Shown here piece by piece: positions 14,876 to 26,604 of a stretch of DNA of 29,037 nt. Source of the stretch: a virus; the IMG/VR virus record IMGVR_UViG_3300044535_000749, positions 1 through 29,037 of that record. One strand, written 5' to 3'. The notes below the pieces were generated by a model. The model made no database searches. It was not told the DNA's origin and saw only the letters and a list, made by a program, of their open reading frames with translations. The position numbers and the translations under genes are program-made. The first letter of the stretch is position 1; every line of letters starts with the position of its first letter.

Positions 14876-15418
14876 ATGAACTTAGATCTAATGATTATTG
14901 ACAATTTTTATAACAACCCGGATGCAGTCAGAGCGGCTGCTCTTACATTAGAGTTCGATGTTATCGGCAGCTATCCCGGCAAAAGAACTGTTCCATTCTT
15001 GACAGAAGACGTAAAGTCATCCATCCAACATTGGATGAATCCAGTAGGCAATATTACAACCTGGCATGAATATTCTGGTTATAGCGGAGCTTTCCAGTAT
15101 ACAACGGCATTTGATAGAACATGGATCCATTGTGACCATACTAGTATGTGGGCTGGAGTGTGTTACCTGTCACCTGATGCTCCACACACGGCCGGGACCG
15201 GAATGTTCAGACACAAAGAAACCGGAGAATATCGAGCACCCCACAATGAACATGAGTCGTATGACTATACTAAATGGGATAAGATCGATATAGTAGGTAA
15301 TAAGTACAACCGTTTAGTCATTTATCGTGGTGACCTATTCCATGCAAGCCTTGACTATTTTGGTAAAGATCTTTATGATGGACGTCTTTTCCAGACGTTT
15401 TTCTTTGACACGGAGTAA
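14876..15418 (+). CDS. 2-oxoglutarate/Fe(II) oxygenase-like protein (DUF6445-like)
   Basis: This 180-residue protein has a double-stranded beta-helix pattern with an iron triad: H85-C-D87 in WIHCDHTS and a distal H156 in YRGDLFHAS. R170 in GRLFQTFFF is placed to bind 2-oxoglutarate. The block NRLVIYRGDLFHASLDYFG is characteristic of the DUF6445 group of phage and bacterial proteins, which are thought to hydroxylate a protein or small molecule; the substrate is unknown. It is transcribed opposite to the structural genes from its own late promoter and lies 2 nt before the glycosyltransferase gene. It differs from the second oxygenase at 19408-19986. Confidence 0.82.
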   Translation: MNLDLMIIDNFYNNPDAVRAAALTLEFDVIGSYPGKRTVPFLTEDVKSSIQHWMNPVGNITTWHEYSGYSGAFQYTTAFDRTWIHCDHTSMWAGVCYLSPDAPHTAGTGMFRHKETGEYRAPHNEHESYDYTKWDKIDIVGNKYNRLVIYRGDLFHASLDYFGKDLYDGRLFQTFFFDTE

Positions 15419-15420
15419 GT

Positions 15421-16176
15421 ATGATGAAAGTTTGTAAAGTATTATGGTCGACTAATCGCCTTGAATACCTAATTCCTACCCTGAAGTCACAAAGAAGTAT
15501 GCTAGATTTTACTGGGTGTGAAGTAGAAGGAATCTTTATTGATGACATGCCAAAAGGTCGTCATGACGGTACATTATTTGAATTAGTAAAAAGCTTTGGT
15601 TATACTGATATTATACTCAGACCTGAGAATTTAGGTCTTCCTCAGACATGGCGTACGACGTTTGAACTTTTAAAGCAAAAAGATTGTGACTATGTGTACC
15701 TATCAGAGGATGATGTCACATTTACCCAACCTATTAAGATGCTTGACATGATCGAAATCGCGTCAAACAATCCGATGTTTTCTCAGGTATGTTTGACAAG
15801 ACAGAAGTGGTATGAATACGAGGAAGAAACACAAGCCCTAGAAGATGATATATTACTAGGAAACTACAGAGGTGAGTTATCAGAAGCTTATTTCTGGAGT
15901 CTGTCGAGTATCTTCCGGAGAGATCTCGTAGATATCAACCATACGGATATTGTCGGAGAAAAGAATCTTAGCGAATATGTGGTTGCTAAATCTCTGCAGT
16001 CACTTGGTATGAAGACATGTAAGTTAAAGTCTTCAGACGGAAGCAATATAGTCAATCATATCGGCGATTATAGTGTTGGTAAAAGAGCTGAACCGGGTGA
16101 TCCTCGGTACGATGATTTTAAGATGTATGATCCTGAAACCAAATACAGTTCTAAAAATGGCCGCAAATGGGCCTAA
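15421..16176 (+). CDS. GT-A-type glycosyltransferase-like protein
   Basis: This 251-residue protein begins MMKVCKVLWSTNRLEYLIPT, which resembles the first strand and helix of family-2 glycosyltransferases. An EGIFIDDMP strand follows, then RPENLGLPQTWRTTFELLKQ and the metal/nucleotide motif YVYLSEDDVTF (the DxD equivalent). A later segment, FWSLSSIFRRDLV, fits an acceptor-side loop. No membrane segment is present, so it should act in the cytoplasm on a soluble acceptor such as a protein or a nucleotide-linked sugar. It shares a transcript with the upstream oxygenase. GGAGTAAGT precedes two adjacent ATGs; either 15421 or 15424 could be used. Confidence 0.8.
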   Translation: MMKVCKVLWSTNRLEYLIPTLKSQRSMLDFTGCEVEGIFIDDMPKGRHDGTLFELVKSFGYTDIILRPENLGLPQTWRTTFELLKQKDCDYVYLSEDDVTFTQPIKMLDMIEIASNNPMFSQVCLTRQKWYEYEEETQALEDDILLGNYRGELSEAYFWSLSSIFRRDLVDINHTDIVGEKNLSEYVVAKSLQSLGMKTCKLKSSDGSNIVNHIGDYSVGKRAEPGDPRYDDFKMYDPETKYSSKNGRKWA

Positions 16177-16256: not shown

Positions 16257-16264
16257 TATAAATA
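16257..16264 (+). promoter_or_regulatory. Late promoter (TATAAATA) for the small plus-strand gene
   Basis: An exact plus-strand octamer. The predicted start near 16270 leaves a 23-nt leader that contains AGGAG (16283-16287) before the ATG at 16293. Confidence 0.7.
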
Positions 16265-16292
16265 TGGTAGAATGCAGTTCATAGGAGTAAGT

Positions 16293-16631
16293 ATGTCAAA
16301 CTTAGTAAAAATTGACGATGTTCGTATATATTTCGGAGTTACAACTCCCGAAGCACTTCAGGCTATATTTGACTGCAAGCAGATCTTGGATGATAACAAC
16401 ATACCGTATGCTAATCTTATATATCCAGATGTAAATGTGTACCCCGAGGTATTTGAAAACCTAAGTACATGGGCATTTGGTACAGACTTCACTCAGTATA
16501 CATTCACCGACTTTCCTATCATAACATGGAAAGAATACTACGATAACTACGAAGTATGCGATCAAGTAGCAACCTCAGTTGAAATGCTCGAAGCTAGCAG
16601 CATGCTCGAATTCAAAGAACTAGTAGAGTAA
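16293..16631 (+). CDS. Unknown small protein, possibly thioredoxin-fold
   Basis: The protein is 112 residues from the ATG at 16293. An earlier in-frame ATG at 16272 exists, but AGGAG at 16283-16287 points to 16293. The order of a strand (VRIYFG), a helix (EALQAIFDCKQILDDNNI), a second strand and then DFPIITWKEYYD is reminiscent of glutaredoxin/thioredoxin folds, where a cis-Pro precedes a strand. No CxxC motif is present, so it would not be a normal redox protein. It has both a host-type and a late promoter. Its end overlaps the end of the convergent minus-strand gene by 12 nt. The fold call is tentative. Confidence 0.7.
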   Translation: MSNLVKIDDVRIYFGVTTPEALQAIFDCKQILDDNNIPYANLIYPDVNVYPEVFENLSTWAFGTDFTQYTFTDFPIITWKEYYDNYEVCDQVATSVEMLEASSMLEFKELVE

Positions 16632-17129
16632 CTTCTTCGGTCTGTTAACAAAATCACCCAGCTTTATAAATGCTAGCTTAGCATCACCGCTGATTGTATA
16701 TTCATAGTCTCTAGGGGCTATATAATAGAGTGCTTTGACATCTGCTTCTTCAAATGTGAACATTCCGAGTATGTTGTATACACCGGTATTAGGGGGCACA
16801 ACAATGTCTCCTTTTAACCTCTTATACTCTGCAACAAATGGTTGGTAGCTAGAGAAGCAAAGCCATACACTATCGCCAACATAATACTCGATTGTTGGAT
16901 ACGTTAAATGTACATTTGTATTGACATATGTCTCACCTGTAACAACTCCCGACAGCTCGTTGTTATCAGCACGATGTTCTCTCATCTCGCCTCTATAGAG
17001 ATATGTGAAGAATAAGTTCTTTTCGTAATCTCCTGTGTCGGGTATCCAGTGCTTAAAATCACCATCTCTTCTGGCGCAAATGTGAACCGTGAAACCTGTG
17101 TACTTGATTTGCAAGAGAGCTGATTTCAT
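16620..17129 (-). CDS. Unknown protein, last gene of the accessory operon
   Basis: This 169-residue protein is not recognised. It is rich in aromatic residues and predicted beta strands, for example FTVHICARRDGDFKHWI near the N-terminus, VWLCFSSYQPFVAEYKRL in the middle, and VPPNTGVYNILGMFTFEEAD followed by ALYYIAPRDYEYTI. The segment VVPPNTGVYN and the closing strands recall a jelly-roll (cupin-like) barrel, but no metal-binding His pattern is clear. It overlaps the sulfotransferase gene by ATGA and converges with the plus-strand gene, sharing 12 nt. It ends the leftward accessory run. Confidence 0.75.
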   Translation of the reverse strand: MKSALLQIKYTGFTVHICARRDGDFKHWIPDTGDYEKNLFFTYLYRGEMREHRADNNELSGVVTGETYVNTNVHLTYPTIEYYVGDSVWLCFSSYQPFVAEYKRLKGDIVVPPNTGVYNILGMFTFEEADVKALYYIAPRDYEYTISGDAKLAFIKLGDFVNRPKKLLY

Positions 17130-18031
17130 ATCTCAAACCTCTTTGGTCTGACCTTTGCGCTCAGTACACCATCTTCTTGTATCTGTTTATAGTATGCAAG
17201 AGCTTCAATAGTATTGAGCGTCACATCAAATGTAGCTCTAAAAGCCTCCGATGCGGTTAAGTCTTGAATGGTGATTGTGTTTGTTTTTACAATATAATCT
17301 CGGAACTCAGCAGGTATGTTTTCCAATACCTCTGCTTCTAGCTCGTCAAGAAAACTATCCGGTATATTTTGATTGAACTCGGCTCTGCCAATTTGCTCAA
17401 ACTGATTTACCTTTTCCTTCGTGATTGATTCGACGTTTTCCATACCAAAGAACGACAGTAGCTTATTGAACTGGGTTAGATCCAGTATCTGATCCAACGA
17501 AGTCTCGTATATCTTACAACCAGCTTGCTTTAGGATCGGTGCATAGTGTCTGATTCTACGCTCAGTGTCTAAACACCACCAATAGCATAGCTGATAGTTA
17601 TGAGCTGTTTCCCAATCCTTGTATGGCAATACGCTAGGTTCATCTGGCCCACTGTACCAACCTCTGATCAGTTCATGGCGACCTGGGATCCACTTTAAGT
17701 TAAACATACTCAATGCGACTTCACGCATAGGTCTTCTTAGCACTATGATGTTAGGAGTGATACCCTGATCGAGGAAGTGCTCAATGAAACCTTCTCCTAC
17801 CATATGTCCTGTATGAACACAGTGGGTTTGTGGTTTTGAATTAAAGAACTCAATTTTGTTTTTTACAAAGGCTTTGCCTATAGAAGGATCTTGTAAGTTG
17901 GCAACTCTTACAGTATGGAAGCCAGGATCTCCTTCGTGTTCGGCATACACATCTGGAACAGTTGACATAAGAGTTGCCAACTTGTTTGTACCAGAGCGTC
18001 CTGCAGACAACATTAAGGTGATTGTCTTCAT
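17126..18031 (-). CDS. PAPS-dependent sulfotransferase-like protein
   Basis: This 301-residue protein has the two phosphoadenosine-phosphosulfate (PAPS) binding motifs of the sulfotransferase superfamily: a 5'-phosphosulfate loop SAGRSGTNKLATLM (residues 9-22) following an N-terminal strand, and a 3'-phosphate motif VLRRPMREVALSMF with R99/R100 and S108. A helical C-terminal half (CYWWCLDTERRIRHYAPILK onward) fits the family. There is no signal peptide or transmembrane helix, unlike Golgi enzymes, so it would work in the infected cell cytoplasm. Likely acceptors are a glycan, a Tyr residue or a small molecule; none can be read from sequence. ATGA overlaps couple it to both neighbours. Confidence 0.85.
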   Translation of the reverse strand: MKTITLMLSAGRSGTNKLATLMSTVPDVYAEHEGDPGFHTVRVANLQDPSIGKAFVKNKIEFFNSKPQTHCVHTGHMVGEGFIEHFLDQGITPNIIVLRRPMREVALSMFNLKWIPGRHELIRGWYSGPDEPSVLPYKDWETAHNYQLCYWWCLDTERRIRHYAPILKQAGCKIYETSLDQILDLTQFNKLLSFFGMENVESITKEKVNQFEQIGRAEFNQNIPDSFLDELEAEVLENIPAEFRDYIVKTNTITIQDLTASEAFRATFDVTLNTIEALAYYKQIQEDGVLSAKVRPKRFEI

Positions 18032-18519
18032 CTTGCCCTTGCTAGAAAGTGCATATGGCTGTTATTGTATACTTCGTTTCTGTCGAGCGGCAGTATCTCG
18101 GTTGTAGAGGCATTATACATCATCACTTCTACTTCAGGAATAGTTTCGAGCTTTGCCCACAACTTGCCAGTGAATTTGGTATGGGTTCTGTCTGAAACAA
18201 GTATTTTCTTCTCTTGGAGAATATGATACAGGTATATTTCGCGACCGATACCTTTGCCCATCAGCTCATCTTTGACATGAAACTCATGTCCTCGAGCCAT
18301 TGACTGCTTAAAGACCATCAGCCAGTTATAGGCTACAAGGGTGTCTCCATCGAACAAGCCATAGTAGGATGAGCATTTGTCATCACATCTCTTGAATGTG
18401 TAGCCTTGAATCTCACCTATTGTGACAGTGTTCTCTCCGAACAGTCTTTTGCAATACTCGAAGTCTCTAAAATCATCAATCAACCACATATAGACACTTT
18501 CCCATTGCTCATAATCCAC
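18028..18519 (-). CDS. GNAT-like N-acetyltransferase
   Basis: This 163-residue protein has a GNAT-like layout: a central strand (YYGLFDGDTLVAYNWLMV), a HEFHVKDEL strand, then MGKGIGREIYLYHIL, a basic Gly loop and helix like the acetyl-CoA pyrophosphate motif (R/Q-x-x-G-x-G/A). A closing LPEVEV-like strand (IPEVEVMMYNAST) follows. It would transfer an acyl group from CoA to an amine; the substrate is unknown. The start is a GTG at 18519 overlapping the methyltransferase gene by 40 nt. An internal ATG at 18489 would reduce the overlap to 10 nt, closer to the operon norm, so the start is uncertain. It ends in an ATGA overlap with the sulfotransferase. Confidence 0.72.
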   Translation of the reverse strand: MDYEQWESVYMWLIDDFRDFEYCKRLFGENTVTIGEIQGYTFKRCDDKCSSYYGLFDGDTLVAYNWLMVFKQSMARGHEFHVKDELMGKGIGREIYLYHILQEKKILVSDRTHTKFTGKLWAKLETIPEVEVMMYNASTTEILPLDRNEVYNNSHMHFLARAR

Positions 18520-19400
18520 GCACTTGTATCCTGTGGAATACTTATAGTGACCACCTCACCCTTTACGACTTTCTTAGGGTTCAGTATCTGACTTGGGTGG
18601 CCTGCTTTTCGAATGAGTTTATCCTTATGCATGATAGCCATATCCCACTTGATAGCCGTCAGCCATCCGTCCTCAATTACTTTAAGTTGGAGTGTCTTCG
18701 GCCTCTCTTCTAGTGCATGCTCCAAAGTGTAGTCGAGGTAAGCAAGTCTAACAGGCTCAGTTAATGCTTCATGCACCGCAAACTCTTTGACAATATCGCC
18801 AATAGCTCTTGGCATCAGAGAGGACATCAGAAACTTCTTATAGTAGAAGTTGTCTGGATTACGTAGATAGTTTAAGGTGATACCACTGTCTTCTTCTACA
18901 AGAGAGATGTCATCATACAGACCCTGTGCGTTGATAGTACCAAACCCACAACCAGTCCCTGTATACTCTACATGATCAGGAGCAAGGATTGTATTCTCAT
19001 GTCCGAACTTCTCAACACACTTCTTGAAGCTAGTTTGCTGGCCATCGTTGAACCAGGGCTCATGGACATAGATCATACCTAAAATAACGTCGAACGTTTC
19101 CCCGTTAAGATCTAGATCTTTGAAGTCTTGTTGGATGAACTCTACGTCAACATTGTTTTCTTTTGCAATCTCGCGAGCTATGTTTACGTTGCCATGGTCG
19201 ACACCAACAACTCTAGTGGCCCCCATCTTGGCAGCCATAATAGCTAGATTACCTAGCGCGCCAGTGCCTAGGTCCAATACAGACATCCCAGGTTTGATAA
19301 TACCACTCATAATCTCTCTGAGGGATATCGTTCTATCTCGAGTTTCTTTGAGTAGATAAAAGTGTTCGTAAGGACTATTGCCAATTGCTTCGTCTAGCAT
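18480..19400 (-). CDS. SAM-dependent methyltransferase, PRMT-like
   Basis: The protein is 306 residues from the ATG at 19400, 7 nt after the upstream stop and behind AGAGG; a TTG 9 codons earlier overlaps that gene and is less likely. Motif I is VLDLGTGALGNLAIMAAKMG (41-60) and the ribose-binding acid is D68 in VVGVDHG. The preceding FYLLKETRDRTISLREIM recalls the protein arginine methyltransferase (PRMT) pattern of a Leu, an Asp/Glu, an Arg and a Tyr/Arg helix. After the Rossmann part, ILAPDHVEY and a C-terminal barrel-like segment (GWLTAIKWDMAI, then AGHPSQILNPKKVVKGEVVT) also follow PRMT order. The double-Glu loop is not clear (E114 is the one candidate), so catalytic specificity for arginine is uncertain. 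The methyltransferase call is firm; PRMT-like is a good inference. Confidence 0.85.
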   Translation of the reverse strand: MLDEAIGNSPYEHFYLLKETRDRTISLREIMSGIIKPGMSVLDLGTGALGNLAIMAAKMGATRVVGVDHGNVNIAREIAKENNVDVEFIQQDFKDLDLNGETFDVILGMIYVHEPWFNDGQQTSFKKCVEKFGHENTILAPDHVEYTGTGCGFGTINAQGLYDDISLVEEDSGITLNYLRNPDNFYYKKFLMSSLMPRAIGDIVKEFAVHEALTEPVRLAYLDYTLEHALEERPKTLQLKVIEDGWLTAIKWDMAIMHKDKLIRKAGHPSQILNPKKVVKGEVVTISIPQDTSAWIMSNGKVSICG

Positions 19401-19407
19401 AAAACCT

Positions 19408-19986
19408 CTATTTGAATGGGGGACCAATAAACCACATGATCAGGGCTTTTCTCTCTCCTGATATCAGTGGGGTCACTTGGTGTGGCACATAGCCTGGGAT
19501 ACTATAAAACGTTCCTTTGCCTTTTGGAACCTTGCGAAGGCCTTGGTCGGTCATCACCTCAATGTCACAACCCTCATACTCTGACGGATCTGATAGCTGT
19601 AGGACCACAACCATTTTACGTACCAGGTTAGACGCGACACTCTTCGAATGTTCTTTTTTGTCCGTATGCCACCCTACGTGGCGCCCAGGCGCATCGTACT
19701 TCGAATAGAGGACACCTTGTGGTAGCGCTGACGTTATATTGAAGCCAAAGTAACTATCGTTTATCTGCTTTGCATATTCACCGAATCTATTGAATATGAA
19801 TTGTCTTTCTAAATCTTTTTTAATAAAGCAACAGAAACCATCATATGAAAGATTAGACACTTCCGTGTCTGTCAGATCTGGTGCACCATCTATAGCAATT
19901 CTTTCTTCGCACAGCCCCGTAAGTTTTAACATCTCATCAGCTGTAAACATATTATCGCCTGTAACTATATCATCAACTAGTTGCAT
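19408..19986 (-). CDS. 2OG/Fe(II) oxygenase, prolyl-4-hydroxylase type
   Basis: This 192-residue protein has a complete catalytic set. The HxD motif is H107 and D109 in GRHVGWHTDK, the distal His is H169 in IPGYVPHQVTPL, and the 2-oxoglutarate-binding Arg is R179 in ISGERKALIMWF, ten residues later as is usual for P4H/PKHD enzymes. Strands RKMVVVLQLSDPSEYEGCDI and VPKGKGTFYSIPG are typical of the jelly-roll core. Family members hydroxylate Pro, Lys, Asn or other residues, or small molecules; the target is not evident. The start overlaps the acyl-CoA synthetase-like gene by 10 nt. It is unrelated in detail to the plus-strand oxygenase at 14876. Confidence 0.9.
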   Translation of the reverse strand: MQLVDDIVTGDNMFTADEMLKLTGLCEERIAIDGAPDLTDTEVSNLSYDGFCCFIKKDLERQFIFNRFGEYAKQINDSYFGFNITSALPQGVLYSKYDAPGRHVGWHTDKKEHSKSVASNLVRKMVVVLQLSDPSEYEGCDIEVMTDQGLRKVPKGKGTFYSIPGYVPHQVTPLISGERKALIMWFIGPPFK

Positions 19987-21236
19987 ACATTGTTCATTAA
20001 TATAGTTGCAACATCAGGGTCTCTACAAACAACCATTCTGTTTTTGAGAAGAGCTCTTACGCCACTTGTGTTATAGTTGAAGCATGTGAATATAACAGGC
20101 TTACCACCTTCATAAACAGCTTTTGCTAGTTCTATCGCATACAGATAGTCCTGATCAGTATGTCTTTCGACATGAATATGCATTATGATGTTATCAATCT
20201 CTTCTGATCGTTGAAGTATTTTCATAACTTCTACAGCGTCTTTTGTAAACCCTGCCGAGCTTCCTACCATGTCGATTGGATTAGCAGCTGTGGATTCTTT
20301 TGATAACACACTCTCTATTTCTGATACAAGCTGTTCAGATGGCTCATCAATCAGCAAGCTGTTGAACTCAGCCGATGTTGATAGCATGACTCCATATCCG
20401 CCCGTATCGGTTACCAGCATTGTTCTTTTTCCAGCTGATCTAGGTTGATCAGAATTCATATACTGAATTACAGCCGTAAAGTCCATCATGTTTCTTGCAA
20501 CATTCAATGCAATAGAAAGATTGGAACCTGTATGACGCTTTGCTGCTCTAATAGCGGCAGGTGTTGCCCATGGAACATATAAGACTAGAGGCTTGGATAG
20601 TGTTTGGATATACTCGAAAGGGATCTTGTCTACGTCTTCGTAATACATGGCAATGATTTCAGTATGGATATCATTATCAAAACTTTGAATAATATCTTTG
20701 AGGTCTACACCGTTCTGATTGCCTACAGTAATAACACGAGAGAACCCCATGCCAGTAGGTTTTAGTCTTTCTGCAAGGTCGACAACTAGACCACCGCTCT
20801 GAGAAATCACTCCTACATTACCAGGTACGAACTCTCCTAATGGAAGACAATCTATTGGTGTGTTAGCATCCCATATACCTGCACAGTTGGGGCCAATGAA
20901 CACTGTGCCGTTTGACTTGGCTTTATCTACTATACGCTGCTCGAGTTCGCCATTGCCTTTTTCACTAAAACCTGCAGTTATGCAGATAATAGCTTTAGTG
21001 TTTATTTCTAATAGTTGATCGACAACAGGTTCTACCTCATCGACTGCTACACATATAACAGCCAAGTCTAAAGCTTTGGGCAAGTCTTTTATGGATTTGT
21101 TCTTGTCTACAAGATACACAGATCTCTTGTCTTTGTGTTTCAAAAGACCGTCAGCTATCCAATTACCCCATTTGTCGGGGTTGTTGGATGCTCCTATAAC
21201 TGCAACAGTTGAAGGGTTAAAAATAAAGTCAATCAT
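19977..21236 (-). CDS. NDP-forming acyl-CoA synthetase alpha-type protein (no ATP-grasp)
   Basis: This 419-residue protein follows the alpha-half order of ADP-forming acyl-CoA synthetases and succinyl-CoA synthetase. A CoA-binding Rossmann domain (FNPSTVAVIGASNNPDKWG, about residues 6-24) ends with FIGPNCAGIWD (113-123). A flavodoxin-like ligase domain has VGVISQSGGLVVDLAE (141-156) and VGNQNGVDLKDII. RAAKRHTGSNLS carries H235 at the place of the phosphohistidine loop (SHTG in the family). A second flavodoxin-like domain begins at TMLVTDTGGYGVM. The ATP-grasp (beta) domain is absent, so it could not use nucleotide alone unless it partners with a host protein. GGTGA precedes the ATG. This class is very unusual in phages; the function here is unknown, and a CoA-dependent partner role with the GNAT is one idea. 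Confidence 0.87.
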   Translation of the reverse strand: MIDFIFNPSTVAVIGASNNPDKWGNWIADGLLKHKDKRSVYLVDKNKSIKDLPKALDLAVICVAVDEVEPVVDQLLEINTKAIICITAGFSEKGNGELEQRIVDKAKSNGTVFIGPNCAGIWDANTPIDCLPLGEFVPGNVGVISQSGGLVVDLAERLKPTGMGFSRVITVGNQNGVDLKDIIQSFDNDIHTEIIAMYYEDVDKIPFEYIQTLSKPLVLYVPWATPAAIRAAKRHTGSNLSIALNVARNMMDFTAVIQYMNSDQPRSAGKRTMLVTDTGGYGVMLSTSAEFNSLLIDEPSEQLVSEIESVLSKESTAANPIDMVGSSAGFTKDAVEVMKILQRSEEIDNIIMHIHVERHTDQDYLYAIELAKAVYEGGKPVIFTCFNYNTSGVRALLKNRMVVCRDPDVATILMNNVCN

Positions 21237-21253
21237 AATATATCACCAAAAAA

Positions 21254-22024
21254 TTATGTATATGCGAAGTATATCTTCCCATCACCACCAGCGGCACCAG
21301 CATTGCCTCCGTACCCACCGTTGCCACCAGCGGATCCAGTATTATAGCTACCACCAAGTCCAGCTCCACCAGCGGCTGCCCCAGCGGTGGTTCCAGTTGC
21401 TCCAGCATTCCCTGTTGTATTAACAACCGTTCCACCAGACGCCGATCCACCACCACCACCAGTGCCAGCAGTGCCAGACGCACCCCCGCCACCACCACCG
21501 GCGGACATAGATGTAAGCGCTATCGACCCACTTGTTACTGTAGATGCGCCACCCGCGACACCAGAAGTGTTATAAGCGCCTCCTGATCCTGCGCCACCCA
21601 CAGTGTATGTAAATGTACGACCATTGGCTTTAACTGCTATGGAGGTGCGAGCAAGGCCCCCAGAGCCTCCGCCACCACCACTATATAGTGTACCGCCTTT
21701 ACCGAAAACAAGACCACCACCACCGCCACCCGAAGCACCAATAGCTTCAATCACAACTAACTGGGCTCCAGCTGGAATAGTCTCAGTGGCCCCAGAAGCT
21801 GCAGATGTGTAGTTTCTATTGGTTGCAACGAACTTAGTAGCACCGTAGAAGTTACTAAAGCTGATTGTACCAGATGTAGGGATTACTACATCAGATGAGT
21901 TATATGTACCTGACGGCACATTAGAACCTCCGGAATAATATTCATTTAGTCCGATAGGGTTGCTACCGCCAAATTCAGTTTGAATTTGAGCTAATGTAAT
22001 TGCCCCGGAGGTCTGCAGAGTCAT
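21254..22024 (-). CDS. Glycine-rich tail adhesin-like protein
   Basis: This 256-residue protein has an N-terminal segment (SGAITLAQIQTEFGGSNPIG, then IPTSGTISFSNFYGAT) that recurs in tail-surface proteins of marine T4-type phages and probably serves for attachment. From about residue 98 it is dominated by poly-Gly runs (several GGGGG blocks) separated by Ser/Thr/Ala/Tyr segments and ends in GGDGKIYFAYT. The pattern resembles the Gly-rich polyglycine-II lattice of T-even gp38 adhesins, so a host-receptor-binding tip is plausible. No membrane or signal segment is present. It follows the small 69-residue gene by 3 nt, with AAGG as ribosome site. The receptor is unknown. Confidence 0.85.
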   Translation of the reverse strand: MTLQTSGAITLAQIQTEFGGSNPIGLNEYYSGGSNVPSGTYNSSDVVIPTSGTISFSNFYGATKFVATNRNYTSAASGATETIPAGAQLVVIEAIGASGGGGGGLVFGKGGTLYSGGGGGSGGLARTSIAVKANGRTFTYTVGGAGSGGAYNTSGVAGGASTVTSGSIALTSMSAGGGGGGASGTAGTGGGGGSASGGTVVNTTGNAGATGTTAGAAAGGAGLGGSYNTGSAGGNGGYGGNAGAAGGDGKIYFAYT

Positions 22025-22683: not shown

Positions 22684-25600
22684 TTATTTATCCTCTTTGA
22701 GTGAGATGATTTCTTGTTGTAGTTTATTTATACTAGTTTGTTGTTCCTTGATTGCTTCAATCAGGAGCCCGACTATATTACCATAGTCAACTGATTTAAT
22801 TCCATCGGCATCTTCACGAACGACTTCCGGAAGGATTGCTTCGACTTCTTGAGCAACCACACCAATCTTGCGCTTCTCTTTATCTTCTTCTTTGATGCGA
22901 TCATCAGTACGATAGTATGTTACACCACGAAGAGCAAGAGTCTTTTCAAGGGCATTCTTGATAGTATATATGTCACGCTTGATTCGTACATCTGAGTAAG
23001 CTGTGATGTTGTCTGAAGCAGTGATACCACCATATACGTAAAGACCGCGTGATCCTGCTTCACCAATCGCAACGTTAGTACCTGCGGCAGCTCTAATCAT
23101 TGGCGCTCCGGTTGGCGTGTCCCATACCTGCCAGACACCACCAGTTGCAACGTCAAAAGAACACTCAGCACTAGCTGGAACGAGGATATTTACCGCGTTG
23201 TTCCAAGTAATATCATTGCGCCATGTTTGTGCACCAAGACTTACAGTGTTTAAAACTGAAGTACCATCTGGATCAACGTATCGCTCAGTATTATTGCTAT
23301 CAATAAATTGTGTAGCATATAGTGTCGATCCGTAATTATTTCCATAAAGTGCAAACCGTGACCATGCGGCGGTGCCGCTATTATTAACGGACCTATAGAA
23401 CGGATTATTGCTAAAGAAGTCAGCTGCAATTTGCATTGAAAAGTAGTTGCCATTATTACTGTGTGTAGCAGCAATCATATGCATCCAGCTGCCGTTGTAT
23501 GGCCAGCCCTCAGCTGTAGTAACTGTATCGTGCTCGTAGAAACCTGAATCTAATCGAGTTGTGATGTCAGCTCTATTAACACTATCATCAGTGAATGTGC
23601 AACCTGCGGCACTGGCTGCACTGCCCGTTATATTAATGCCCCAGCTACCTGAAGCAGCACCGCGAATAGCAGTTGCAACAGCACCAGGTGTTGTACGAAC
23701 TAATTGGTTAGTTGTTGGATACATTGATGTTAATACTGTAGGAGTCTGTTCAGAAAGACCTGAACTTAGAATAATTTCACGAGCCGCAATATCACCCGCC
23801 GCATCTCTATAAGCAATAGTGTTTGCAGTAGGTGCTGTTGTTGGATTGTTAAATCCACTAATCGATGCAGCAGTACCGGTAACATTAATGCCCCAGTTTC
23901 CAGATGCACCTGTTCCTGTTAAAGTTGGTGAGTAAGTATTATAGTTAGCAGTTGTTAAAACTATATACCATGCACCCCATGTAGTATCAATACCACTACG
24001 AATACTTAAACGTGGTGGGCCAGATGCGTTTACCCCGCTCTGATTTCCGAATGCCAATTGATATGAAGAGTCTCCGGTACTTGCAGTCGTTCCTGTCCAC
24101 GGCGCAAACGTCATAACACCAGCATAGTTTCCTACACCGTTGCCTGTGCCAGCTCCAACAAAATCCCAATTTACAGTTCTTGTAAAAGTATTTGGAAGTC
24201 TATCAGAAAGATCTCTTGGACCATCGTTGAAAACTATTCTTAATGCATTCGTGGCGCTGCCAGCACTTCCGGATATACTACCGGTGATAGTGTTAGTAAC
24301 AGTTAAACCATTTAAGTTAGAAGTACTAGCAGCATCAACATAAAATGCAGTGTTGGCACTATCGTAAAAGATAGGCGCACGCAAGGATACCGAGGCTTCA
24401 GCATATCCGGCTGGATATACATAAAGAGTAGCTGTATTATAAGCAGATCCGATAAAATGATAGCTAAACCCGTCACCGCTACCAAGAGCACCAAAACCAC
24501 CATGATTTGTTCCGCCAGATCCTAAAAAGGATAACTGAGTAGCCCAACCACCAGCATCTCCTTTAATTGATATCGATCCATTATTACCGTTAACAGTAAC
24601 AGGACGAGCAGTGCCAAACGTACCAGTATCAGCAGTTGTTAATGCATTTAAGTTAGAAGTACTGGCGGCATCGATATAAAATGCAGTGTTAGCGCTATCA
24701 TAGAAGATAGGTGCCTGCATACTGGTAGTTGCTATTAAAGAACCGCCGCCTGTTAGTCTAAGTTGGTTAGTATTGTTAAATCTAAACTGTAGTTCTTCGC
24801 CGGAATCGTCACCCCAACCAATAACAGAGTGATAGTTTGTACCACCGTCATATGTTACAAGACCAAAGAATGCGCCATCAGAATTCTTTCTGATATTCAG
24901 ACCATAACCACCAGTAATATAACTTGGAAATGAATTATCTACTTCTGAGTTTGAAGTTTCACCAATAAAGAATTCTGTATCCCAACCTGCTCCGCTTCCA
25001 CTATCCAGTCTCTTTGAGCGAATATCACCATTGATGTTTAATGAAATAGTAGGAGTAACAGGATTGCTTTGTAGATCTAAATAATATGTTGTATCTGCAC
25101 TATCGTAGAAGATCGGCGCGCGAAATGATCCAGCCACGGAAGACACACCGTCACTGTTTGAAAGAACAGCATCTCTATAAGATGAGTATGCAGTACCACT
25201 TGCATGTGTTTGTTGGTAGATTCGCATACCAATTGCGCTTTTGTTAAACAATACTAGATTGTCATTACCACCCGATCCATCAATATAACTACGTAAGTGT
25301 AAGTAATCTGCATATGGAGTATCGCCATTATTATTAAATGCAGTAAAACCAAAGTTCATTCTACCGGCACCGAGCGCAGTCGGCTCAATAACTCTATCAT
25401 CTATTGATGGTAAAAAGTTAGCAACAGAACCGGTGAAACCGATATCACCTTTAGAACCGGTGAAACCTATAACAGTTGATGCTGATCCAGTAAATCCTAT
25501 GATACCTTGCGAACCAGTGAAACCGATATCACCTTTGGATCCTGTGTAACCTATAACAGTTGATGCCGACCCCGTGAAACCAATATCGCCTTTGGATCCA

Positions 25601-26604
25601 GTAAAACCAATATCACCTTTAGATCCAGTATAACCGACAACAGTTGATGCTGATCCAGTAAAACCAATATCACCTTTAGATCCAGTATATCCTATAACCG
25701 TGGATGCTGAACCGGTAAATCCTATGTCACCTTTAGATCCGGTGTATCCTATGTCGCCTTTAGATCCGGTGTATCCTATAACCGTGGATGCTGAACCGGT
25801 AAATCCTATGTCACCTTTTGACCCTGTAAAACCGATATCACCTTTAGATCCGGTGTATCCTATAACCGTGGATGCTGAACCGGTAAATCCTATGTCACCT
25901 TGCGAACCAGTATAGCCAAGAGATCCTGTATAACCAATAATACCTTGTGAACCGGTGAATCCTTGGCTGCCTGTAAATCCGATGATACCTTGGCTGCCTG
26001 TAAATCCGATGATACCCTGACTTCCGGTGAAACCTCTTGAACCGGTATAACCTTGATCACCGCGGTTTCCAGTCACAACAAACGAAACAACAACATTTGT
26101 AGCATTAGCAAGAGGAGTAGTATTACCAGAAACATACGCTACAGGAATGTCAAAGTGATTACCATGATCGATATGTGTGCCGGTGATATTAAAAATTGTA
26201 AAATTGGCAGAATTAGCTTCTTCGCTAAATTTAATAGAACCTTTAATATCTGATGTAGAGTCGTCGATTGTCTGAATAAATGCAGTCAAGTCGGTGTCAT
26301 TTCTATCAACAGTAGAAATGCCCATGATCGTTGCTTGCACGAAGTTTGTGTTTGTTAGTAGAACATAACCATCTTCGATTTCTTCAATAAAGATGTCAGT
26401 AGACCATTTGTAATAAAACGATGCACCACCAAATTCACCAGGTTCACCCTTGTCACCTCTTGATCCGGCAAATCCTACCCCAGATCCCCAATAGATTCCA
26501 GTTCCATTTGAAAGCAAAGCTTGCCCTGCTGATCCAACGTAGCCGTTCGCAACGAGATTCTTCAGAGAAACAGGATTTAAATAATGTACTGTATCTTTAG
26601 ACAT
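22684..26604 (-). CDS. Collagen-like tail fibre with S74 chaperone domain
   Basis: This 1306-residue protein has an N-terminal part with VHYLNPVSLKNLVANGYVG and a short GDKGEPGEFGG triplet run. Next come a beta segment and a collagen-like region at about residues 179-392 with Gly-X-Y triplets such as GFT, GSK, GDI and GSQ, broken six times by GSASTVI or GSASTVV. A long shaft follows with at least three copies of a motif like APIFYDSANTAFYVDAAST. The C-terminus, from about residue 1204 (SDVRIK, then KIGVVAQEVEAILPEVV), is a Peptidase_S74 domain that folds the trimer and usually cleaves itself off at the Ser. A coiled coil ends it. This would be a receptor-binding or side fibre. The ribosome site is weak and the start overlaps the upstream gene by 8 nt, suggesting coupling. 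Confidence 0.92.
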   Translation of the reverse strand: MSKDTVHYLNPVSLKNLVANGYVGSAGQALLSNGTGIYWGSGVGFAGSRGDKGEPGEFGGASFYYKWSTDIFIEEIEDGYVLLTNTNFVQATIMGISTVDRNDTDLTAFIQTIDDSTSDIKGSIKFSEEANSANFTIFNITGTHIDHGNHFDIPVAYVSGNTTPLANATNVVVSFVVTGNRGDQGYTGSRGFTGSQGIIGFTGSQGIIGFTGSQGFTGSQGIIGYTGSLGYTGSQGDIGFTGSASTVIGYTGSKGDIGFTGSKGDIGFTGSASTVIGYTGSKGDIGYTGSKGDIGFTGSASTVIGYTGSKGDIGFTGSASTVVGYTGSKGDIGFTGSKGDIGFTGSASTVIGYTGSKGDIGFTGSQGIIGFTGSASTVIGFTGSKGDIGFTGSVANFLPSIDDRVIEPTALGAGRMNFGFTAFNNNGDTPYADYLHLRSYIDGSGGNDNLVLFNKSAIGMRIYQQTHASGTAYSSYRDAVLSNSDGVSSVAGSFRAPIFYDSADTTYYLDLQSNPVTPTISLNINGDIRSKRLDSGSGAGWDTEFFIGETSNSEVDNSFPSYITGGYGLNIRKNSDGAFFGLVTYDGGTNYHSVIGWGDDSGEELQFRFNNTNQLRLTGGGSLIATTSMQAPIFYDSANTAFYIDAASTSNLNALTTADTGTFGTARPVTVNGNNGSISIKGDAGGWATQLSFLGSGGTNHGGFGALGSGDGFSYHFIGSAYNTATLYVYPAGYAEASVSLRAPIFYDSANTAFYVDAASTSNLNGLTVTNTITGSISGSAGSATNALRIVFNDGPRDLSDRLPNTFTRTVNWDFVGAGTGNGVGNYAGVMTFAPWTGTTASTGDSSYQLAFGNQSGVNASGPPRLSIRSGIDTTWGAWYIVLTTANYNTYSPTLTGTGASGNWGINVTGTAASISGFNNPTTAPTANTIAYRDAAGDIAAREIILSSGLSEQTPTVLTSMYPTTNQLVRTTPGAVATAIRGAASGSWGINITGSAASAAGCTFTDDSVNRADITTRLDSGFYEHDTVTTAEGWPYNGSWMHMIAATHSNNGNYFSMQIAADFFSNNPFYRSVNNSGTAAWSRFALYGNNYGSTLYATQFIDSNNTERYVDPDGTSVLNTVSLGAQTWRNDITWNNAVNILVPASAECSFDVATGGVWQVWDTPTGAPMIRAAAGTNVAIGEAGSRGLYVYGGITASDNITAYSDVRIKRDIYTIKNALEKTLALRGVTYYRTDDRIKEEDKEKRKIGVVAQEVEAILPEVVREDADGIKSVDYGNIVGLLIEAIKEQQTSINKLQQEIISLKEDK
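22725..22732 (-). promoter_or_regulatory. Late promoter (TATAAATA) inside the fibre gene 3' end
   Basis: An exact minus-strand octamer is encoded in the last coiled-coil codons of the fibre (around TSINKL). The predicted start near 22719 leaves a leader of about 36 nt before the ATG at 22683, the normal spacing in this genome. It probably drives the overlapping accessory genes as far as 16620. Confidence 0.65.
25428..26070 (-). repeat. Collagen-like coding repeat with 84-bp period
   Basis: The fibre's Gly-X-Y region is a DNA-level tandem repeat. Three almost identical blocks begin near 25689, 25773 and 25857, spaced exactly 84 bp (28 codons), with more diverged copies on both sides. The encoded unit is GSASTVI, then GYT/GFT-GSK-GDI triplets. 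In-frame recombination could lengthen or shorten the fibre. Confidence 0.85.

What the first reader, a model, noticed from the sequence alone, without database searches (positions are those of the whole stretch)
16620..21236. Late-expressed modification cassette: CoA-ligase subunit, hydroxylase, PRMT-like, GNAT, sulfotransferase
Six minus-strand genes, mostly overlapping by 4-40 nt, encode five different group-transfer enzyme types plus one unknown, directly behind fibre and adhesin genes and apparently on the same late transcript. Each enzyme family is recognised from motifs; their combination is not one I know from T4-type phages. Late co-expression with surface proteins suggests they modify virion proteins (fibres) or a linked small group, rather than host DNA. 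An alternative is sequential assembly of a small molecule.
Basis: partly seen in the sequence, partly recalled or inferred. Interest (0 to 1): 0.85.

Follow-up and report, generated by a model that had tools for sequence, protein, structure and literature searches.

The report
Adhesin-linked phage enzyme cassette
A group of bacterial viruses keeps, next to the gene for a glycine-rich tail-tip protein, a set of six small genes, five of them for chemical-modification enzymes, that recurs in distant phages and is exchanged between phages as one block, which points to an undescribed way of decorating a phage's own tail tip or something made with it.

Summary
In detail: six minus-strand genes at 16620-21236 encode an ADP-forming acyl-CoA synthetase alpha subunit (ACD-alpha), a 2OG-Fe(II) oxygenase, a class I methyltransferase, a GNAT, a sulfotransferase and an unknown protein (unk169). 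They lie behind a late-type promoter, a Gly-rich protein and fibre genes. All six are under purifying selection and occur, in order, in five further IMG/VR contigs. One of these (L006) is a recombinant in which the block Gly-rich gene + six genes + u119 was exchanged. Four more distant contigs keep ACD-alpha and the sulfotransferase, with unk169 wherever that region is sequenced. One, a 326-kb T4-type contig (L205), has all six classes in 4.9 kb facing a Gly-rich protein and a collagen-type fibre; its 2OG and methyltransferase come from unrelated families of the same class. No ATP-grasp partner was found, even in the 326-kb contig, yet the ACD phospho-histidine is invariant. I found no named isolate with the module and no paper describing it. 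Best reading: a late module that modifies the Gly-rich tip protein or a group attached to it; the substrate is inferred. Collagen prolyl hydroxylation and arginine methylation are not supported.

The parts
19977..21236 (-). ACD-alpha: alpha subunit of an NDP-forming acyl-CoA synthetase (CoA-binding domain, flavodoxin-like domain with phospho-His235 in RHTGS, C-terminal domain); no ATP-grasp part
   Evidence: His invariant in six aligned phage sequences
19408..19986 (-). 2OG-Fe(II) oxygenase, PKHD/PiuC-like; H107-x-D109 ... H169 ... R179
18480..19400 (-). class I SAM methyltransferase, SAM domain closest to PRMTs; corrected start
18028..18489 (-). GNAT-type acyltransferase; corrected start
17126..18031 (-). 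PAPS-type sulfotransferase (GRSGT 5'-PSB; RRPxxxVALS-type 3'-PB)
16620..17129 (-). unk169: unknown protein, predicted mostly beta (low confidence); found only beside ACD-alpha and sulfotransferase
21254..22024 (-). Gly-rich tip/adhesin-like protein (about 29% Gly, 23% Ser+Thr), first gene of the exchanged block
16272..16631 (+). u119: convergent small gene with its own late promoter; conserved beside the module; last gene of the exchanged block
22725..22732 (-). late-promoter consensus TATAAATA upstream of DUF7936, u69, Gly-rich gene and cassette
16257..16264 (+). late-promoter consensus TATAAATA of u119
14876..16176 (+). neighbouring late unit: DUF6445/2OG-like protein (14876-15418) and GT2-like glycosyltransferase (15421-16176); absent from L004/L005 between u119 and gp13, so not part of the core
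22684..26604 (-). long fibre with collagen-type repeats and S74 chaperone domain, upstream of the module

Best explanation
The six genes plus the Gly-rich gene and u119 form one inherited, late-expressed module. Shown by sequence: composition, co-conservation, block exchange, intact catalytic motifs, late-type promoter. Inferred: in the cytoplasm of the infected cell the enzymes put acyl, sulfo, methyl and hydroxyl groups onto the Ser/Thr/Tyr-containing Gly-rich tip protein, or onto a sugar or other small group carried by it, while tails are assembled, and so set or vary receptor binding. Proposed steps: ACD-alpha handles an acyl-CoA or acyl-phosphate (with a host beta subunit, or as a carrier); the GNAT transfers the acyl group; the 2OG oxygenase and methyltransferase tailor it; the sulfotransferase adds sulfate from host PAPS; unk169 and u119 act as accessory or chaperone-like proteins.
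For: Six genes in order in 6 contigs. L006 has a window-like backbone but a 96-99% L005-like block running from about the Gly-rich gene start (22000) to just beyond the u119 start (16250). The core persists in L182, L180, L181 and L205. L205 holds all six classes in 4.9 kb next to a Gly-rich protein, two u119 copies and a collagen/S74 fibre. unk169 was found in 8 contigs, all with ACD-alpha and sulfotransferase beside it. A standalone Gly-rich protein is present in every module lineage whose region is covered, against 1 of 77 gp13-neighbour loci. 2OG and methyltransferase places are refilled by unrelated families in L205/L181. Late promoter. None of the six sequences shows an obvious export signal by eye.
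Against: No direct evidence for the substrate. A Gly-rich protein exists without the module in L019. Sulfotransferase relatives occur elsewhere without fibres. L182 and L180 lack some enzymes, so the full chemistry is not obligatory. In L205 the adhesin and the enzymes are on opposite strands. The slot carries many other cargo genes (e.g. Coq4), so neighbourhood alone does not prove the target. The link of the two halves rests on few independent lineages.
Confidence: 0.45

Rival explanations
1. The enzymes tailor a glycan: a phage glycosyltransferase places a sugar on a fibre or tip protein (or on a host surface glycan), and GNAT, sulfotransferase, methyltransferase and 2OG enzymes decorate the sugar.
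For: Glycosyltransferases lie beside the module in the window (GT2-like), L180 (GT4-like, by eye) and L205 (GT25); related slots carry GT60 (PF11397), GT25 and HldE-like genes.
Against: L182 has no glycosyltransferase between fibre and gp13; L004/L005 lack the GT2 gene there; no sugar-nucleotide genes inside the module.
Confidence: 0.25
2. The enzymes make or alter a soluble small molecule or host metabolite late in infection (auxiliary metabolism), and the position next to the fibres is only a cargo hot spot.
For: The slot between fibres and gp13 is a variable cargo site in about 77 related contigs, with metabolic-looking genes such as Coq4 and an HldE-like gene; ACD-alpha is a metabolic enzyme family; sulfotransferase homologues occur far from fibres.
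Against: The same core recurs with a Gly-rich protein and u119 in distant lineages, and the recombination block starts at the Gly-rich gene.
Confidence: 0.2
3. ACD-alpha and GNAT form a split Pat/PatZ-like protein acyltransferase that acylates host or phage proteins; the other genes are unrelated cargo.
For: ACD-alpha and GNAT genes are adjacent and overlapping in L182 and L205; a protein acetyltransferase of the ACD type is among the solved relatives of ACD-alpha.
Against: The catalytic His, which Pat enzymes are reported to lack (from memory), is invariant here; L180 has ACD-alpha without a GNAT; the sulfotransferase and unk169 are the more constant partners.
Confidence: 0.07
4. The 2OG enzyme hydroxylates prolines of the collagen-type fibre, as proposed for viral prolyl hydroxylases.
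For: A collagen-repeat fibre and a PKHD-like 2OG enzyme lie near each other; viral prolyl hydroxylases are reported (PMC9301287).
Against: The window fibre's Gly-X-Y repeats have Thr, Gln, Ile or Lys at Y and almost no Pro; L182 and L180 lack a homologue of this 2OG gene.
Confidence: 0.03

Closest known systems
ADP-forming acetyl-CoA synthetase (ACD) alpha subunit (TIGR02717; PDB 2csu, 4xyl)
   Same: Domain order, CoA-binding and flavodoxin-like domains, phospho-His motif
   Different: Far below the equivalog cut-off (213 of 567 bits); phage-specific KWGNW motif; no ATP-grasp beta subunit in any of ten records, including one of 326 kb
Pat/PatZ protein acetyltransferase (ACD-GNAT fusion)
   Same: An ACD part and a GNAT encoded side by side in two lineages
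   Different: Separate genes, His retained, no ATP-grasp part, GNAT not always present
Cyanophage-type 2OG-Fe(II) oxygenases (phrog_61) and PKHD hydroxylases (PiuC)
   Same: Fold family, metal ligands
   Different: Known phage copies are described as single cargo genes of unproven substrate; here one member of a conserved multi-enzyme module
PAPS-dependent sulfotransferases (PF00685/PF13469), also reported in OM43 phages (PMC10580990)
   Same: 5'-PSB and 3'-PB motifs
   Different: Divergent subfamily; that paper states that the function of phage sulfotransferases is unclear
Protein arginine methyltransferases
   Same: SAM-binding domain closest among solved structures
   Different: No double-E loop or THW motif; similarity not detected in the C-terminal part

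Membership tests
ADP-forming acyl-CoA synthetase (ACD) | CoA-binding and succinyl-CoA-ligase-like domains in alpha order | tested here: met
ADP-forming acyl-CoA synthetase (ACD) | phosphorylatable histidine in HTGS-type motif | tested here: met
   His235 invariant
ADP-forming acyl-CoA synthetase (ACD) | ATP-grasp beta subunit encoded with it | tested here: not met
   no PF13549 in ten records and no PF08442 in six, including 326 kb; most records are fragments
Pat/PatZ acyltransferase | ACD fused to GNAT, with catalytic His lost | tested here: not met
   (the loss of His in Pat is from memory)
2OG-Fe(II) oxygenase | profile match and HxD...H...R ligands | tested here: met
Collagen prolyl-4-hydroxylase system | Gly-X-Pro substrate in the neighbouring fibre | tested here: not met
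Protein arginine methyltransferase | SAM domain of PRMT type | tested here: met
Protein arginine methyltransferase | double-E loop and THW motif | tested here: not met
   sequence, read by eye: LGMIYVHEPWFNDG and GHPSQ at the corresponding places
Protein arginine methyltransferase | C-terminal beta barrel | tested here: inconclusive
   model confidence too low (pLDDT 40)
Sulfotransferase | 5'-PSB and 3'-PB motifs; link to PF00685 through a homologue | tested here: met
GNAT | profile match directly or through a homologue | tested here: met
   L205 homologue above PF00583 cut-off
Virion-modifying phage enzymes | modified virion protein that depends on the enzyme | not testable with these tools
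   needs mass spectrometry

The most novel reading that the evidence does not exclude
A previously undescribed phage pathway, found in distant T4-type phages up to 326 kb, that builds a sulfated, acylated, methylated and hydroxylated decoration on a polyglycine-rich tail-tip adhesin, using an ACD-alpha subunit that works without a phage-encoded ATP-grasp partner.
Probability: 0.3. Interest if true: 0.88.

Novelty: new variant of a known kind. Interest (0 to 1): 0.66.

Why it matters
Phage genomes carry many 2OG oxygenases, sulfotransferases and methyltransferases whose substrates are unknown. Here such enzymes form a conserved set tied to one candidate substrate, a short Gly-rich tip protein, and exchanged with it as a block. 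That makes a long-standing question (what these late phage enzymes modify) directly testable. If true, chemical decoration of receptor-binding tips would be a new layer of host-range control, and a beta-less ACD-alpha would be a biochemical oddity worth solving.

Tried and rejected
AlphaFold models of the methyltransferase (pLDDT 40) and unk169 (pLDDT 37) were too poor for fold search, so none was run. Profile comparison of unk169 with the L021 unknown (c43) gave no link. Cellular ACD relatives (80 genome loci) showed no cassette around them, apart from one short methyltransferase match in L111, so a bacterial donor cluster was not found. Named phages: no match for the sulfotransferase, methyltransferase, GNAT or unk169, and only weak ACD matches at 22-30% identity. 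Paper searches for such a cassette returned nothing relevant. Pfam on unk169 and u119 gave nothing usable. Prolyl hydroxylation of the collagen repeats was rejected on composition.

Full report
What the window is. The window is a whole IMG/VR record of 29,037 bp from a T4-type phage: uvsY, gp23, scaffold, protease, portal, sheath, terminase and neck genes are in T4 order. The best-listed named portal proteins, at about 50-55%, are from cyanophages and a Stenotrophomonas phage. The finding's region has no near DNA match among named phages.

Observation. Six minus-strand genes fill 16620-21236. The acyl-CoA synthetase alpha subunit (ACD-alpha) and the 2OG oxygenase are recognised directly. The methyltransferase is a class I SAM enzyme whose best solved relatives are arginine methyltransferases, but only over positions 13-108 of the profile; read by eye, its sequence lacks the double-E and THW signatures. 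The sulfotransferase and GNAT are invisible to Pfam directly, but homologues in other phages pass the curated cut-offs (L070 for PF00685; L205 for PF00583). Conserved starts shorten the methyltransferase to 18480-19400 and the GNAT to 18028-18489. The overlaps are then 4, 4, 10 and 10 nt with one 7-nt gap, still the picture of one operon.

Late expression. The T4-type late promoter TATAAATA occurs 8 times in the window (1.5 expected; no shuffle of 100 had as many). One copy lies at 22725 (-), ahead of DUF7936, u69, the Gly-rich gene and the six genes. Others lie ahead of u119 (16257, +) and the 2OG-like/GT2 pair (14838, +). The 22725 and u119 promoters are kept in relatives. The 'same late transcript' claim is therefore plausible but not measured.

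Conservation of the six. Separate scans with ACD-alpha and with the methyltransferase found the same five further contigs, and each carries all six genes in order. Two are 98-100% identical in protein, three 85-90%. Between the two types dN/dS is 0.01-0.09 for each gene (dS is near saturation for some genes, so the ratios are approximate but low).

Block exchange. L006 has window-like neck genes (88-94% DNA identity to the window, 70-78% to L005), but from about window coordinate 22000 down to about 16250 it matches L005 at 96-99%. Those ends fall at the start of the Gly-rich gene (22024) and just beyond the start of u119 (16272). L005 itself has a backbone mostly 64-76% identical to the window beside a cassette at 80-85%. 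The block has therefore moved between phage lineages as a unit that includes the Gly-rich gene.

Distant lineages. A profile of the sulfotransferase reached L180, L181 and L182, and a profile of ACD-alpha reached L205. L182: fibre, Gly-rich (70%), ACD-alpha (42%), GNAT (30%), sulfotransferase (48%), unk169 (45%), u119 (-), gp13. L180: collagen fibre, Gly-rich, ACD-alpha (35%), sulfotransferase (57%), unk169 (45%), u119 (-), glycosyltransferase-like genes, gp13. L181 (contig ends early): putative 2OG, sulfotransferase, methyltransferase, ACD-alpha, behind a late promoter and beside a DUF7936 homologue; no fibre is on the contig. L205, from a 326,658-bp contig with a gp23-type capsid protein: 2OG, 2OG, sulfotransferase, methyltransferase, ACD-alpha, GNAT, unk169 within 4.9 kb, facing GT25, two u119 copies, a Gly-rich protein and a collagen-repeat fibre with a chaperone-like end. 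BLAST among these proteins shows that ACD-alpha, sulfotransferase, GNAT, unk169 and u119 are homologous wherever present, whereas the 2OG and methyltransferase of L205/L181 have no detectable similarity to those of the window. The same enzyme classes have been recruited from different families, which I take as the best sign that the set works together.

Co-occurrence. unk169 was searched on its own and found in eight contigs, all with ACD-alpha and sulfotransferase next to it. A standalone Gly-rich protein of 217-289 aa is present in every module lineage whose region is covered, and in one of 77 gp13-neighbour loci without the module (L019; in the other eight Gly-positive loci the signal lies in long fibres with collagen repeats). 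Many of those 77 loci do not cover the whole slot, so the contrast is indicative only.

The missing beta subunit. ACD enzymes need an ATP-grasp beta part (established for the family). No PF13549 match was found in any of ten records and no PF08442 match in six, including the 326-kb contig. Yet His235 is invariant in ACD-alpha. Either a host beta subunit is borrowed or ACD-alpha acts as an acyl-CoA or acyl-phosphate carrier. This is unexplained.

The slot. In about 77 related contigs the stretch between fibres and gp13 is a variable cargo site with other enzyme sets: GT60-type glycosyltransferase with 2OG, desaturase-like (by eye) and sulfotransferase genes; an HldE-like gene with GT25 and sulfotransferase; Coq4 with 2OG. 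The module here is one with a conserved, recurring composition.

Mechanism. Shown: unit, late-type promoter, intact motifs, linkage with the Gly-rich gene. Inferred: substrate and order of steps. The Gly-rich protein is rich in Ser and Thr, has 12 Tyr, and is poor in Lys and Pro, so sulfation or O-linked decoration is chemically possible. Proline hydroxylation of the collagen repeats is unlikely, because Y positions are Thr, Lys, Gln or Ile. Rivals are decoration of a glycan, small-molecule chemistry and a split Pat-like acyltransferase.

Limits. All records may be fragments; host unknown; both structure models were of low confidence; homologues of the sulfotransferase occur alone elsewhere; collections of named phages hold no example, so the module is known only from metagenomes. 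The statement that such a cassette is undescribed rests on a limited full-text search and my own knowledge.

Noticed in passing
L029, L031, L034, L088, L089 (same slot): A GT60-type GlcNAc transferase (PF11397, a family whose known eukaryotic member acts on hydroxyproline; from memory) sits next to 2OG oxygenases between fibre and gp13: a possible hydroxylation-then-glycosylation pair for phage fibres.
   Followed up: partly
L065, L066, L069, L071 (same slot): An HldE-like bifunctional gene, an epimerase-like and a cupin-like gene lie with GT25, a methyltransferase and a sulfotransferase beside the fibres: apparent heptose-type sugar synthesis.
   Followed up: partly
L021, L022, L074: A Coq4-family gene (PF05019 in L021) with two 2OG oxygenases lies between a fibre-tip gene and gp13.
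   Followed up: no
window 16272-16631 and homologues L205:12069-12706: u119 looks like a glutaredoxin-type fold without CxxC (weak SH3BGR hit, E 0.058); duplicated in L205.
   Followed up: no
L183, L188, L190, L191: Relatives of the cassette sulfotransferase (28-35%) stand alone in DNA-metabolism regions of other phages.
   Followed up: partly
window 14876-16176: Plus-strand 2OG-like (DUF6445) plus GT2 pair with its own late promoter; common in relatives without the module and absent from L004/L005.
   Followed up: partly
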